From: Intrasporangiaceae bacterium URHB0013
Lineage (GTDB): Bacteria > Actinomycetota > Actinomycetes > Actinomycetales > Dermatophilaceae
Assembly: GCA_000620545.1 (NCBI GenBank)
Contig: JIBA01000016.1
Span: 124,001-188,000, forward strand
Direction of reading: 5' to 3'
DNA: 64,000 bases
Shown here: positions 37,808 to 48,965 of the stretch, one piece after another
Numbering within the stretch: the first letter of the stretch is position 1
How the letters are laid out: every line of letters starts with the position of its first letter
Translations under genes and position numbers: made by a program
The notes under the pieces: model-generated
Told to the model about the DNA's origin: nothing
The model's database searches: none
What the model saw: only the letters and a program-made list of their open reading frames with translations

Positions 37808-40477
37808 TCAGGCAGAAGGCGTCTCGAAGACGACCGCCATCGGGGTCTGCTCGGAGCCCTGCCCGAGCGGGTTGTCGGCGAACATCGCCTCGTAGCGCTC
37901 CTTGGGTCCCGGCGCGTCCTTGCCGAGGACGTTGCGACCGATGTCGTTGGCGTCCATGACGACCGTGCCACCGAACGTGGCGCGGTACGCCTCGGGCACC
38001 CGCGCGCGGATCGCCCGTGAGAGGTGCGCAGCCACGTCGTCGGGGTCCTTGGGTCCGAGCTTGGCCGACACGTTGGCCGGGTAGACGGAGTACTCGGTGG
38101 GCCCGTCGATGGCGCGGATGTCACCGCCGACGAGGTCGTAGAAGAGCCCGCGCCTGCCCAGCACCTTGCCCACGGCACCGCCCGCCGAGGCGAAGAGCAC
38201 GCGCGGCAGACCCGCCTCCTCGATCGCGAGCTGCATCGTGAAGGGCGACCCGAGGCCGATGCCAGCGGGGGTGCGCGTCACGTAACGGCTGAGCAACCGG
38301 GCCGGCCGGCCGACCTTGATGTCCCAGATGAAGTAGGACCGCCCCTGGGTGATCGCGACGATCTTCTCGGAGATGAAGAAGTACCAGCGCCCGCCGGTCG
38401 CGGCCGCGTGCTCCGGTCCGGCCTCGGGCAGACCGGAGAAGAAGCGCTCGATGTAGCCGAGCGTCTTGGCCTCGAGGTCGTCCTCACGGGCGTAGAGGTC
38501 GGTGCGCAGCGGGTAGCGGCGCACCGGCGTGCCGTCGGCCGTCACGAGGTCGAGCTGCTTGCGGGCGTTCGGCTCGTAGTCGGTCTTGACGTGGTCGGCG
38601 CTCCCGGCGGCGTCGGGCTCGGGCTCGTCGAAGAACTCCTGGAGCCAGAGCTCGAGGTTGAGCATCCGCCAGACCGTCATCGAGTCGATCGAGTTGGTGC
38701 CCTTGATCCACCCCTCGAAGGCGTGGAGCACCGCCGTCTGGTCGAAGTAGGGGCGCGCTGCGAACGACTCGGAGAGGAACTCGCCGTAGATGTGGTTCTT
38801 GAGGCGCATGAACCACTCGCCCTGCGGGGTCGTGGCGCCGATCTTGTCGCGACGGTCGACGACGGAGTCGGGCAGCAGCCCGCGCATCGCGTCGCGCAGG
38901 ACGCGTTTGCCGACACCGTCCTTGACGAGGGCGTCGTCGCTGAGGCCGAAGACGAACCGTACGAGGTCGCGGTCGACGAACGGCATGCGCACGTCGACCC
39001 CGAACCGACGGGCGTTCTTGTCGGTGTAGCGCAGCCGCGCCGGCAGCGAACCGGCGAAGACGTCGTCGGCGAGGCGGGCCCGCAGGTCGGCCTTCTCGAC
39101 GTCGTAGCCCTCGGAGGCATGCGCCCGCGCGAAGTCAGTGTCGAGCAAGGACGTCACGGGCACGTCCTTGCGGCCGTGCAGCCGGTCGCCGATGAGCGGC
39201 CGGCCGCGGCGGTAGAGCACGTCGAGCGAGTGGCCGAGCTCGGTGGCGGCGCTCACGGCGCTGCGACTGCGGAGCTCGCGCAGGTGGATGAGGTGGTGCG
39301 GACCGAAGCCCGCGAGCGTCTCGTCGCCCCCGTGGCCGTCGAGCACCACGGCGTCCCGCTCTGCCGCGGCCTGCAGGACGCGGTACTGGGTGTACGCGCC
39401 GGTCGAGACGAGCGGCTCCTCCTGCGTGCGCACGAGGTCGCGCAGGTCCTTCTTGAACTCTGTCGGCGTCGGCTCGATGCGGTGCTCCTGCGCGCGCTCG
39501 CCGAGCGCCCGGACGACGGCGTCGATGTGCTCGCGCTCGTCGTTGCGTGAGCCCGGGTAGACGGCTGACCACGTGTCCTGAACGGCATCGCCGGCCGACC
39601 GGCCCGGCTCCTGCTCGACCACGTCGAGCAGCGCCGCGATGGCGGCCGAGTCGATGCCGCCGGACAGAGAGGTCCCGACCCGGCCCCGAGAGCCGGTCCG
39701 TCGACGCACGGCGGCGGTCAGCAGGGTGCGGAACTCCTCGACGACCGCTGGGGAGTAGGCCCGGGGCGAGCTCGACAGGGTCGAGAGCTCCTCCCGCAGC
39801 CGCGTGTAGGGACGAGCCTCGAGACCGCCCGGCACGTCGGCGCCCAGGGTGACGACCTCACCTGCGCCGACCCGCTCGATGCCCGCGAAGAACGTGGACC
39901 GGCCGTCGTCGTGGACGCGGAAGCGCAGGTAGCGGTAGATCGTGCGGTCGTCGGGACGCCGCTCGTGCAGGCCGCTGTCGAGGATGCCGCGGATCTCACT
40001 GGCGACGAGCCAGCCGTCACCGGTGCGGGCGACGTAGAGCGGGCGCACACCGAAGTGGTCGCGCGCCAGCGTCATCCGGCGCGTGTCGCGGTCCCAGACG
40101 GCGAGGGCGAAGGCGCCGTCGAGCCGGTCGAGGCCGTCGGTGCCCCATTCGGTGAAGGCGGCGAGGACGACCTCGGCGTCGCTGCCCACCCCGACGTCGT
40201 GGCCGAGGGCCTCGAGATCGGCACGCAGCTCGGCGCGGTTGTACAGCTCGCCGTCGAGCGCGAGCGTGAACCGCCCACCCGGGGCGACCGCGAGCCGGGC
40301 CACACCATCGTCGTCAGCGCCCGCGGTCACCCGACCCGGACGCACCTCGCGGACCCCCAGGCCGGCTTCTCCGTCCCGTGCCGTCGCCGCGGCGCCCACC
40401 CCCGGGTGCGTCGCGAGCAGTCGGTCGAGCAGGGCCTCGTCGGCGTGGACACCAAGGTGCCCGGCGATTCCGCACAT
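37808..40477 (-). CDS. Asparagine synthetase (glutamine-hydrolysing) fused to a CofE-like F420-0:gamma-glutamyl ligase domain
   Basis: 889 residues from MCGIAGHLG at 40477, where Cys2 is the class II glutaminase nucleophile; earlier in-frame ATGs give an unlikely extension. Residues ~1-215 are glutaminase; ~240-600 the AsnB ATP-pyrophosphatase domain with SGGIDS at 272-277. Ordinary AsnB would end near residue 630. Here about 259 more residues (encoded at 37808-38587) look like a complete CofE-type domain: RRYPLRTDLYAREDDL, ISEKIVAITQGRS, IGLGSPFTMQLAI, GRRGLFYDLVGG, AKLGPKDPDDVA and MDANDIGRNVLG. One uninterrupted frame, no stop or slippage site at the junction. Product could be amidation coupled to glutamyl or other amide ligation; function unknown. 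Confidence 0.85.
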   Translation of the reverse strand: MCGIAGHLGVHADEALLDRLLATHPGVGAAATARDGEAGLGVREVRPGRVTAGADDDGVARLAVAPGGRFTLALDGELYNRAELRADLEALGHDVGVGSDAEVVLAAFTEWGTDGLDRLDGAFALAVWDRDTRRMTLARDHFGVRPLYVARTGDGWLVASEIRGILDSGLHERRPDDRTIYRYLRFRVHDDGRSTFFAGIERVGAGEVVTLGADVPGGLEARPYTRLREELSTLSSSPRAYSPAVVEEFRTLLTAAVRRRTGSRGRVGTSLSGGIDSAAIAALLDVVEQEPGRSAGDAVQDTWSAVYPGSRNDEREHIDAVVRALGERAQEHRIEPTPTEFKKDLRDLVRTQEEPLVSTGAYTQYRVLQAAAERDAVVLDGHGGDETLAGFGPHHLIHLRELRSRSAVSAATELGHSLDVLYRRGRPLIGDRLHGRKDVPVTSLLDTDFARAHASEGYDVEKADLRARLADDVFAGSLPARLRYTDKNARRFGVDVRMPFVDRDLVRFVFGLSDDALVKDGVGKRVLRDAMRGLLPDSVVDRRDKIGATTPQGEWFMRLKNHIYGEFLSESFAARPYFDQTAVLHAFEGWIKGTNSIDSMTVWRMLNLELWLQEFFDEPEPDAAGSADHVKTDYEPNARKQLDLVTADGTPVRRYPLRTDLYAREDDLEAKTLGYIERFFSGLPEAGPEHAAATGGRWYFFISEKIVAITQGRSYFIWDIKVGRPARLLSRYVTRTPAGIGLGSPFTMQLAIEEAGLPRVLFASAGGAVGKVLGRRGLFYDLVGGDIRAIDGPTEYSVYPANVSAKLGPKDPDDVAAHLSRAIRARVPEAYRATFGGTVVMDANDIGRNVLGKDAPGPKERYEAMFADNPLGQGSEQTPMAVVFETPSA

Positions 40478-46306: not shown

Positions 46307-46538
46307 CGCCTGACCGCGCCACCGGCCGGGCACCCGGGTTTGTAGCCGGACAAATACGGCTTGTCCCGACGAAACCGGGCACCGTGCAGGTCTCGAATTG
46401 GTAACGACCGTGGAACGAAACGGCTACAACGGCCTCCTAACGTCTTGACTGCGATCGTCGTGCTTCAGGGGCGAAGCGGTAGCAATGCCCACGTGCGCGA
46501 CATCCCACCAGGAAACTCACACTTCAGGGACGGTCCAC

Positions 46539-48965
46539 GTGAGGCAATCACTGCACTCCGGGCGTCGCAGGCTCATCGGCCTGCTCGCCACGGGAGCCCT
46601 TGTCACCGGCGCCTTCGCGGCATCACCGGTGCAGGCGGCTCCCAGCGTCGGCAACACCAAGGCCGACAACGCGGCAGCGGGCAAGGCCCGCAACGACAAC
46701 CGCCGGTCACCACTGGCGGTCAAGAAGGACGCGCTGCGCCAGAAGGCGCTCGAGAAGCGCCTCAAGGGTGACCCCAAGGCACAGGGCAAGGTCGCCAAGC
46801 TCGGCAAGGGACAGTACGTCCAGCTCGAGCGCGAGGGCACCGACCGGATCTTTGCGGTGATCGTCGAGTTCGGCGACAAGCAGTATCCGAACGCACTCTT
46901 CCAGGGTCCGCCACCGGACGGCAGCACGACGGACGTCACGGGACCGCTCCACAACCAGATCCCGGCACCGGACCGGTCGGTGGACAACTCCACGCTGTGG
47001 CAGAAGGACTACAACCAGGCCCACTACGACGACATGTACTTCAACCGGATGGCGAAGTACTACGAGACCCAGTCGTCGGGCCGCTACTCGGTCGACGGTG
47101 ACGTCACCGAGTGGGTCAAGGTGCCCTTCAACGAGGCGCTCTACGGCCGCAACTACTGCGGTGACATCGTCTGCCCGACAAGCAAGGCACTCGTGCGCGA
47201 CGCCCTGGCCATGTGGGTCGACGGTCAGCTCAAGAGCGGCAAGTCGCTGAAGTCGGTTCAGGACTACCTCAAGACCTTCGACATCCAGGACCGGTACGAC
47301 GTCGACGGTGACGGCGAGTTCGCCGAGCCGGACGGCGTCATCGACCACTTCCAGATCGTCCACGCCGGCGGAGACGAGGCAGCGGGAGACCCGAACCAGG
47401 GCACCGACGCCATCTGGAGCCACCGCTGGCAGAGCAACCTCCAGCTCGGTGGGCCCTTGGGCGTCGGCGTCGACGTCGGCAGCAACGGCGGCCTCGTCTC
47501 GAGCTCCGAGGTGCCGAACAACCCGACCGGCATGTGGGTCTACGACTACACGGTCCAACCGGAGAACGGCGGACTCGGAGTCTTCGCACACGAGTTCGGC
47601 CACGACCTCGACCTGCCGGACCTCTACGACACGTCCGGCAACACGGGCGGCGCCGAGAACAACACGGCCTTCTGGACGCTGATGAGCTCCGGCGCCAACA
47701 TCGGCGACGGCGGCCGCGACGGCATCGGTGACAACCCCACCGACCTCGGCGCGTACGAGCTCTTCCAGCTCGGCTGGCTGCAGCCGCAGGGCAAGCAAGG
47801 GCCGTTCTACGACGTGGCGACCGCGGGCAAGCGCTCCTCGCACACCCTGGGCTCCAACGCTCCGGCCACCAAGCAGGCACAGGCGCTCTTCACAGTCCTT
47901 CCGGACACGACGAAGACCTTCTCGGTCGGGGCGCCCTTCCAGGGCGCGTGGCAGTTCTACAGCACGCTCGGTGACGACCTCGAGACCACGATGACGAAGA
48001 CCGGGGTCTCCGGCACCGCGCTCTCGGCCAAGGTCAACTACGCGATGGAGACGGAGTTCGACTACGCCTACGTCGAGGTGTCCAGCAACGGAGGGACCTC
48101 GTGGACGCCCATCAAGACGTCTCGTTCCGACGCAGCCGGTCACACTGGGCACGACCCCGACGGGAACAACCCCACCGGTCTCGGCATCACAGGGACGACC
48201 AACGGAGCCTGGGTCGACGTGACCGCCACGCTGCCGGCAGGGACCAACGCCATCCGCTTCCGTTACGACACCGACCCGGCCGTGACCGGGAACGGCATCC
48301 GGATCGACCAGGTCACGCTCGACGGCACGGTCATCGGCACGGCTGAGTCCGCCGACGAAGGGTGGACGTTCGACGGGTTCGTCCGCGCGCAGCAGACGTA
48401 CACGACGCCGGCGCAGTACTTCAACGCTTACATCGCAGAGAACCGTCAGTACGACGGCTACGACGCGTCGCTCAGGACGGCCTACAACTTCGGCTTCGTC
48501 AACACGCGACCGGACTGGGTGGAGGACTACCCGTACCAGAACGGCCTGCTGATCAACTACTGGAACTCCGCCTATGACGACAACAACGTGGGCGACCACC
48601 CCGGCAAGGGCCTGGTCCTGCCGGTCGACGCCCACCCGGAGTTCAGCCACTGGCCGGACGCCACCCTGATGCGCAACCGGATCCTGTCGTACGACTCGAC
48701 CTTCGGGCTCGAGGCCACTGACGCGATCACGCTGCACAACAACGGTGTCGCAGGGTCGATCGCCTCGAAGCCGGCGCAGCCGGTCTTCGACGACACGAGG
48801 ACGTGGTGGGTCAACGCCGACCAGCACGGCGCCACCGGCTCGCACCCGGGCCGCTACCAGCCCGGCTGGTACGGCGTCGACGTGCCCAAGACGGGCACGA
48901 CGATCCGGGTCGTCGGCACCTCGAAGCAGGGCAACTCGCTCAACGTCCTGGTTGCGCCGAAGTGA
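46539..48965 (+). CDS. Secreted M6 family (immune inhibitor A-like) metalloprotease
   Basis: 808 residues from the GTG at 46539 (GGGA ten bases upstream). Signal peptide (LIGLLATGALVTGAFAASPVQA), then a Lys/Arg-rich propeptide. The zinc site is HEFGHDLDLPD with His351, Glu352 and His355. An Asp-rich segment (DRYDVDGDGEFAEPDG) probably binds calcium. After the catalytic domain comes a jelly-roll-like region (ETEFDYAYVEVSSNGG). InhA-type proteases degrade host or environmental proteins. Preceded by 230 bases that likely hold its own promoter; followed by an 18-bp hairpin. Confidence 0.94.
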   Translation: MRQSLHSGRRRLIGLLATGALVTGAFAASPVQAAPSVGNTKADNAAAGKARNDNRRSPLAVKKDALRQKALEKRLKGDPKAQGKVAKLGKGQYVQLEREGTDRIFAVIVEFGDKQYPNALFQGPPPDGSTTDVTGPLHNQIPAPDRSVDNSTLWQKDYNQAHYDDMYFNRMAKYYETQSSGRYSVDGDVTEWVKVPFNEALYGRNYCGDIVCPTSKALVRDALAMWVDGQLKSGKSLKSVQDYLKTFDIQDRYDVDGDGEFAEPDGVIDHFQIVHAGGDEAAGDPNQGTDAIWSHRWQSNLQLGGPLGVGVDVGSNGGLVSSSEVPNNPTGMWVYDYTVQPENGGLGVFAHEFGHDLDLPDLYDTSGNTGGAENNTAFWTLMSSGANIGDGGRDGIGDNPTDLGAYELFQLGWLQPQGKQGPFYDVATAGKRSSHTLGSNAPATKQAQALFTVLPDTTKTFSVGAPFQGAWQFYSTLGDDLETTMTKTGVSGTALSAKVNYAMETEFDYAYVEVSSNGGTSWTPIKTSRSDAAGHTGHDPDGNNPTGLGITGTTNGAWVDVTATLPAGTNAIRFRYDTDPAVTGNGIRIDQVTLDGTVIGTAESADEGWTFDGFVRAQQTYTTPAQYFNAYIAENRQYDGYDASLRTAYNFGFVNTRPDWVEDYPYQNGLLINYWNSAYDDNNVGDHPGKGLVLPVDAHPEFSHWPDATLMRNRILSYDSTFGLEATDAITLHNNGVAGSIASKPAQPVFDDTRTWWVNADQHGATGSHPGRYQPGWYGVDVPKTGTTIRVVGTSKQGNSLNVLVAPK

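What the first reader, a model, noticed from the sequence alone, without database searches (positions are those of the whole stretch)
37808..40477. Asparagine synthetase fused to a CofE-like glutamyl ligase domain
A full AsnB (Cys2, SGGIDS at 272-277) continues in frame into about 259 residues with the CofE motifs ISEKIVAITQGR, KLGPKDPDD and DANDIGRNVLG. I know of CofE only as an enzyme of F420 maturation or as a stand-alone homologue; a fusion to an amide-forming glutaminase would place two amide-bond-forming activities on one chain, a good candidate for an undescribed ligase.
Basis: partly seen in the sequence, partly recalled or inferred. Interest (0 to 1): 0.75.

Follow-up and report, generated by a model that had tools for sequence, protein, structure and literature searches.

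The report
Asparagine-synthetase protein fused to CofE-like ligase
A soil actinobacterium carries a protein that joins an asparagine-synthetase-like half to a relative of the enzyme that adds glutamate to the cofactor F420; the fusion is shared by many actinobacteria, its second half looks like an uncharacterised ligase, and its first half has lost residues needed to use glutamine.

Summary
Confirmed: one 889-aa minus-strand frame (40477 to 37808) joins a glutaminase/AsnB synthetase to a CofE-like domain. The architecture is conserved: 25 of 31 loci from one scan are fused, as are deep Actinomycetota lineages in which PF01996 passes its cut-off on the fused chain. The second domain is homologous to CofE but is not the known F420 ligase: it lies far under the CofE equivalog cut-off, is 26 residues shorter after its last motif, and occurs beside the genome's own FbiB-type gene and in four examined genomes without one. 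On a tree, ATP-loop loss needs 7 changes (5 forced by well-supported branches) and glutaminase loss 6 (3 forced). The genome has the tRNA-dependent Asn route, so it needs no free Asn for translation. Best reading: a CofE-family ligase for an unknown non-F420 substrate, with an AsnB half that once amidated the same product and is now degenerate or a scaffold. Six literature searches found no account of it.

The parts
37808..40477 (-). Whole fused gene, 889 aa plus stop; ATG at 40475-40477
39980..40282 (-). GATase_7 match (residues 66-166), class II glutaminase domain; start of the profile not matched
   Evidence: 105.5 bits, profile 20-122 of 123
40253..40255 (-). Asp75, at the place of E. coli AsnB Asn74 (oxyanion role recalled)
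38639..39736 (-). Asn_synthase domain (residues 248-613)
   Evidence: 185.6 bits, profile 1-354 of 354
39647..39664 (-). ATP pyrophosphatase loop SGGIDS (residues 272-277), intact in this copy
38627..38821 (-). AsnB tail (residues 553-617), well conserved in the 23 aligned fusions even where catalytic loops are gone; candidate contact with the CofE-like half (inference)
37811..38587 (-). CofE-like domain (residues 631-889)
38339..38374 (-). CofE-like motif ISEKIVAITQGR (residues 702-713)
38105..38107 (-). Asp791 of AIDGPT, matched by eye with the Asp of CofE G-(I/V)-D-x-S-N; invariant in 27 rows of A3
37943..37954 (-). DAND (residues 842-845), aligned with D-T-N of Af-CofE; Asp842 and Asn844 invariant in 27 rows of A3

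Best explanation
The gene encodes a fusion whose C-terminal half is a non-F420 member of the CofE superfamily. Inferred mechanism: like CofE it binds a nucleoside triphosphate with divalent metal, phosphorylates a carboxylate of a small-molecule acceptor and couples the acyl phosphate to the amino group of an amino acid, probably glutamate or a similar one; the acceptor is not F420-0, because the stretch that in CofE holds the F420-contacting hairpin is shortened. In the ancestral, still common form the N-terminal half is a glutamine-hydrolysing AsnB-type synthetase, which would amidate a carboxylate of the same substrate or product (two amide bonds, one chain). In Terrabacter and relatives the glutaminase is predicted inactive and the AsnB half is under weaker selection, so this copy works mainly through its CofE-like half, with the AsnB half as a scaffold or a residual ammonia-using synthetase. 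Shown here: the fusion, the homology, the shorter end, the residue losses, the asymmetric constraint. Inferred: substrates, order of reactions, activity.
For: Homology. Motifs: LGPKDPD and D-A-N-D align with Af-CofE PPLDPD and D-T-N, AID with GID by eye; Asp791, Asp842 and Asn844 are invariant in 27 of 27 rows of A3, rows chosen by homology. Shorter end, same anchors (conserved Asp to the residue, mostly Pro, before the last strand): 36-38, median 37, in 81 of 81 family rows against 63 in 13 of 13 CofE/FbiB-type domains; in Af-CofE a domain-swapped beta-hairpin makes critical F420 contacts (PMC10861534, section 8 read). Not tied to F420: a CofE-type gene (TIGR01916, 149-263 bits; 12 of 24 over cut-off) is present besides it in 20 of 24 genomes, but G181, G431, G709 and G710 have only matches under 26 bits or none. 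Canonical AsnB halves: TIGR01536 390-439 bits in L017, L059, L124, L132, L133, cut-off 267.1. Degeneration: window 260.4, L020 176.6, L021 54.9. dN(synthase)/dN(CofE) is 2.0-9.5 in 10 pairs among degenerate copies and 0.48-1.06 in 6 pairs among canonical copies (my quotients; pairs chosen by me and sharing taxa). ATP-loop broken in 8 of 52 rows, 7 changes on the CofE tree, 5 forced by starred branches; glutaminase broken in 16 of 36 rows, 6 changes, 3 forced. No need of free Asn for translation: the window genome has a non-discriminating Asp-tRNA(Asn) ligase (NF003483 513.8 bits, cut-off 353) and GatB (447.2 bits), and 0 of 27 genomes have AsnRS over cut-off.
Against: No product, substrate or operon partner was identified; neighbourhoods of fused copies differ between lineages. 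The window copy keeps Cys2 and an intact ATP-loop, and its synthase part still has dN/dS 0.12-0.35 against five relatives, so some AsnB activity may remain. The fusion is the only AsnB-family protein in this genome apart from guaA. The own FbiB-type gene scores 172.3 bits, a little under the TIGR01916 cut-off of 180.65. Glutamate as incoming amino acid is assumed from CofE. hhalign covers only 113 columns, and the end of the domain is not aligned with CofE. Tree changes cannot tell loss from gain; loss is inferred from canonical deep branches, and 14 of 60 forks are weak. The motif table took rows by these same motifs, so its intact CofE motifs are partly circular. The model (pLDDT 87, pTM 0.84) could not be compared with PDB folds.
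Confidence: 0.45

Rival explanations
1. It is the cell's asparagine synthetase, with a C-terminal domain that only regulates it or adds stability.
For: Only AsnB-family protein in the genome apart from guaA; five canonical fused relatives pass the asparagine synthase equivalog cut-off; ATP-loop intact.
Against: Glutaminase residues lost; window 260.4 bits against a 267.1 cut-off; the genome has the non-discriminating AspRS and GatB route to Asn-tRNA; the CofE half is the better conserved half; 10 stand-alone relatives have no AsnB match in the DNA held around them (flanks from under 0.5 to 5 kb) and two genomes with a stand-alone copy, G083 and G069, have no Asn_synthase domain at all.
Confidence: 0.18
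2. The AsnB half works like beta-lactam synthetase or a lasso-peptide cyclase (AsnB homologues with unused glutaminase; recalled): it adenylates a carboxylate and an amine, not ammonia, attacks it; the CofE-like half makes its substrate.
For: Dead-looking glutaminase with an intact ATP-loop in Terrabacter copies; weak matches to lasso cyclase (227.5 bits, cut-off 525) and CarA (E 1.3e-6).
Against: The lasso-cyclase match is stronger, 244-303 bits, in five canonical copies, so it is generic; no biosynthetic cluster or precursor peptide noticed by eye among the ORFs of 30-48 kb; the ATP-loop itself is lost in 8 of 52 rows.
Confidence: 0.15
3. The C-terminal half is a F420 gamma-glutamyl ligase, a second CofE.
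For: Superfamily and motifs; many carriers also have a CofE-type gene and so probably make F420.
Against: Of 8 fused proteins scanned, one matches TIGR01916, with 22.1 bits (cut-off 180.65); end of the domain 26 residues shorter; own FbiB-type gene at C12:508321 (172.3 bits); domain without a CofE gene in 4 of 24 genomes, of which G181 and G431 are 100% and 98% complete.
Confidence: 0.05
4. The whole gene is decaying and has no function.
For: AsnB residues lost; several lineages show large losses.
Against: CofE-half dN/dS 0.055-0.103 between the window and five relatives; key residues invariant in A3.
Confidence: 0.03

Closest known systems
CofE / FbiB N-terminal domain, F420-0:L-glutamate ligase (PF01996, TIGR01916; PDB 2phn, 2g9i, 7uld)
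   Same: Homologous by profile; conserved Asp residues and D-x-N motif, first part of the domain.
   Different: Far under the equivalog cut-off; 26 residues shorter after the DAND motif; fused to AsnB, not to a nitroreductase; found without a CofE gene in some genomes.
Glutamine-hydrolysing asparagine synthase, AsnB (TIGR01536; PDB 1ct9)
   Same: GATase II then Asn_synthase; five canonical fused members pass the cut-off.
   Different: Window copy is under the cut-off and lacks the HRRLSIID segment and the oxyanion Asn; carries a C-terminal ligase domain.
N-acetylglutaminylglutamine amide system (TIGR03104 amidotransferase with a separate peptide ligase; pathway recalled)
   Same: Logic: an AsnB-type amidotransferase paired with a ligase that makes a small glutamyl peptide.
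   Different: TIGR03104 only 197 bits (cut-off 570.1); the ligase there is not CofE-like and the genes are separate (recalled).
Beta-lactam synthetase, CarA and lasso cyclases (AsnB homologues with inactive glutaminase; recalled)
   Same: AsnB fold with an unused glutaminase, as predicted for the window copy.
   Different: No substrate or cluster evidence; only distant matches.

Membership tests
AsnB asparagine synthase (TIGR01536) | Score over the curated cut-off (267.1 bits) | tested here: not met
   Window 260.4 bits; fused relatives L017, L059, L124, L132, L133 390-439 bits, L020 176.6, L021 54.9
AsnB asparagine synthase (TIGR01536) | N-terminal Cys nucleophile and glutaminase residues (Arg in HRRLSIID, Asn74; roles recalled) | tested here: not met
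   Cys2 present; HRRLSIID segment absent, Asp75 at Asn74
AsnB asparagine synthase (TIGR01536) | ATP pyrophosphatase loop SGGxDS | tested here: met
   SGGIDS 272-277
AsnB asparagine synthase (TIGR01536) | Makes Asn from Asp and Gln | not testable with these tools
   needs purified protein
CofE superfamily (PF01996 in the wide sense) | Profile-level homology to CofE | tested here: met
   PF01996 over cut-off on fused L132, L133 and stand-alone L026-L028; window itself under cut-off
F420-0:L-glutamate ligase (TIGR01916 equivalog) | Score over the curated cut-off (180.65 bits) | tested here: not met
   no match up to E 1 in the window protein; 22.1 bits in L132, 30.4 in stand-alone L057, none up to E 0.001 in six other fused proteins
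F420-0:L-glutamate ligase (TIGR01916 equivalog) | Segment with the domain-swapped hairpin that contacts F420 (PMC10861534) | tested here: not met
   37 against 63 residues between the same anchors; by sequence only, that the lost part is the hairpin is inferred
F420-0:L-glutamate ligase (TIGR01916 equivalog) | Metal- and GTP-binding site residues | tested here: inconclusive
F420-0:L-glutamate ligase (TIGR01916 equivalog) | Adds gamma-linked glutamate to F420 | not testable with these tools
   needs enzyme assay

The most novel reading that the evidence does not exclude
AsnB-CofE is an unrecognised actinobacterial ligase family that makes an amidated, non-F420 glutamyl-type metabolite in two steps on one chain; its AsnB half has become a pseudoenzyme scaffold several times independently while the CofE-like half stayed active. 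The CofE-like branch, found also alone in bacteria without a CofE gene, would be a relative with which the unexplained origin of CofE can be tested.
Probability: 0.4. Interest if true: 0.72.

Novelty: new variant of a known kind. Interest (0 to 1): 0.52.

Why it matters
CofE is known for F420 maturation, and a 2021 review calls its evolutionary origin unclear (PMC8498797, passages seen). A CofE branch with a shortened F420 side, present in some bacteria without a CofE gene and fused to AsnB in several Actinomycetota families, gives a concrete enzyme to test for new amide-forming chemistry and for the origin of CofE. The repeated loss of the AsnB active site beside an unchanged partner domain is also a natural experiment in how enzymes turn into scaffolds. 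It warns annotators too: these proteins invite the names asparagine synthase or F420 ligase, and the window copy is probably neither.

Tried and rejected
Considered a plus-strand gene at the given coordinates: rejected (stops). Considered misassembly or a frameshift joining two genes: rejected (conserved fusion). Considered a F420 ligase: rejected as above. Looked for an operon that would name the substrate: fused copies lie in different contexts (atp operon, guaA with PIG-L and glycosyltransferase as in the window, dapB/thyX/dapA region, metK; named by eye). Tempting as a pathway, but the window genome has no PF14397 match, so not used. Plasmids: no match. Phages: two unannotated faecal records. 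Papers: ten searches used; six aimed at the architecture gave 0 papers or 3 unrelated titles (79, listing only); absence from print is claimed only for this library and these terms. In one search many phylum loci were read on the wrong strand; mended. Rows dropped before counts: 87 entries given to the motif script, 81 rows left (L037, L039, L042, L043, L061, L067 gave no row or a duplicate; that script took rows by CofE motifs); 18 of 81 with a CofE part identical to another row left out of the tree; 11 stand-alone rows and, for the glutaminase count, rows without a full N-terminus left out of the state counts.

Full report
What is there. The interval holds one 889-aa frame on the minus strand, ATG at 40475-40477 and stop at 37808-37810. 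Pfam finds GATase_7 (105.5 bits) and Asn_synthase (185.6 bits). PF01996 is under its cut-off for the window (14.3 of 25 bits), but over it in stand-alone relatives (L026-L028, 39.0-47.6 bits) and in two of seven other fused proteins scanned (L132 49.1, L133 28.1 bits).

Homology to CofE. A profile of 25 family members searched against all PDB sequences returned three distinct sequences, all F420:glutamate ligase (E about 4e-6). hhalign against 13 CofE/FbiB-type domains gave 94.7% probability, E 6.2e-8, over 113 columns; those 13 (11 over the TIGR01916 cut-off) find the same PDB chains at E about 7e-61. The aligned blocks are the first part with SEKIVAITQGR and the LGPKDPD...D-A-N-D block. After DAND the families part: between the same anchors lie 36-38 residues (median 37, 81 of 81 rows) against 63 in 13 of 13. 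In Af-CofE a domain-swapped hairpin makes critical contacts with F420 (PMC10861534, section 8 read); that this hairpin is what is missing is my inference. AlphaFold gives a confident model of the domain (pLDDT 87, pTM 0.84), which could not be compared with the PDB.

Spread. One scan of genome contigs gave 31 loci, 25 fused (L001-L025, frames of 767-911 aa) and 6 stand-alone (L026-L031). In the order, 22 of 198 sampled genomes match: 16 with open frames of 809 aa or more (one with a stop inside the match; I read the fused frame in a part of them), 5 stand-alone, 1 weak fragment. In the family, 39 of 119. In the phylum sample, 35 of 396, some of them weak; four in two far families (G236, G248, G259, G510) have the fusion, G259 only from the end of the AsnB half. 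Three other genomes show TPR-like repeats before the domain (L077, L079, L080; by eye). On a tree of the CofE-like part, fused against stand-alone needs 2 changes, so one old fusion with one later separation is possible; the stand-alone row inside the fused group (L066) is weakly placed.

The AsnB half is degenerating. Five canonical fused copies pass the asparagine synthase cut-off (390-439 bits, cut-off 267.1); the window scores 260.4. Its Asp75 stands at E. coli Asn74 and the HRRLSIID segment is missing. Relatives have also lost Cys2 (4 of 36 rows with a full N-terminus) or the ATP-loop (8 of 52 fused rows). On the tree the loop needs 7 changes (bootstrap 6-7; 5 forced by starred branches; about as scattered as shuffled labels, mean 7.6) and the glutaminase state 6 (bootstrap 5-6; 3 forced; shuffled mean about 12). 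A stricter rule that also counts SGGIDA as broken gives 8. In A2 and A3, whose rows were chosen by homology, the CofE-side residues Asp791, Asp842 and Asn844 never vary; the table agrees but took its rows by these motifs.

Selection. Nei-Gojobori estimates: between the window and L001, L002, L013, L005, L004 the synthase has dN/dS 0.12-0.35 and the CofE half 0.055-0.103. Of 18 pairs computed, dN(synthase)/dN(CofE) is 2.0-9.5 in ten among degenerate copies, 0.48-1.06 in six among canonical copies (L015-L019, L015-L025, L009-L024, L010-L024, L009-L012, L016-L017) and 4.7 and 8.8 in two mixed pairs. Pairs were chosen by me and share taxa, so this is description, not a test. The AsnB tail (553-617) stays conserved even in Microlunatus (94% identity between L021 and L022, against 75% in the synthase part), where both catalytic sites are gone; contact with the CofE half is a guess.

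Physiology. The fusion is the only AsnB-family protein in this genome apart from guaA. 0 of 27 genomes have AsnRS over cut-off; the best frame in the window genome is a non-discriminating aspartate-tRNA(Asn) ligase (NF003483 513.8 bits, cut-off 353; nearest PDB chain 1n9w), as are the two others checked, in G083 and G699. GatB is over cut-off in 26 of 27 genomes, the last with a partial match. So Asn-tRNA can be made on the tRNA and free Asn is not needed for translation. Genomes G083 and G069 with the stand-alone domain have no Asn_synthase domain. Five genomes with a degenerate copy (G688, G689, G690, G692, G693) also have a second Asn_synthase hit in an open frame over 950 aa; of the five fetched, L124, L127 and L128 read as canonical fusions, while in L125 and L126 my motif test found no CofE motif in that frame. 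The window genome has no second copy. A CofE-type gene scores 149-263 bits to TIGR01916 in 20 of 24 genomes (12 over cut-off; the window's own 172.3 is under it); G181 and G431 have only matches under 26 bits, G709 and G710 none.

Conclusion. The most likely function is a CofE-type NTP-dependent amide ligase for a non-F420 acceptor, to which an AsnB amidotransferase was once joined and then lost its activity in several lineages. Six literature searches aimed at the combination found no account.

Noticed in passing
   Followed up: partly
L077, L079, L080: The CofE-like domain is preceded in the same frame by TPR-like repeats, a second fusion type (by eye).
   Followed up: no
phage-collection records MT835656.1:5924-6682 and MT838774.1:2197-2880: Unannotated faecal 'Bacteriophage sp.' records encode CofE-like relatives (61% and 30% identity); may be bacterial DNA.
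   Followed up: no
G000:C17:124467-125708 (L149): Non-discriminating, archaeal-type aspartate-tRNA(Asn) ligase in this actinobacterium; a frame of similar score to asnS is seen in many of the 27 genomes.
   Followed up: partly
window 46485-48965 (+): 826-aa ORF that looks by eye like a secreted M6-type metalloprotease (HEFGHDLDLPDLYD).
   Followed up: no
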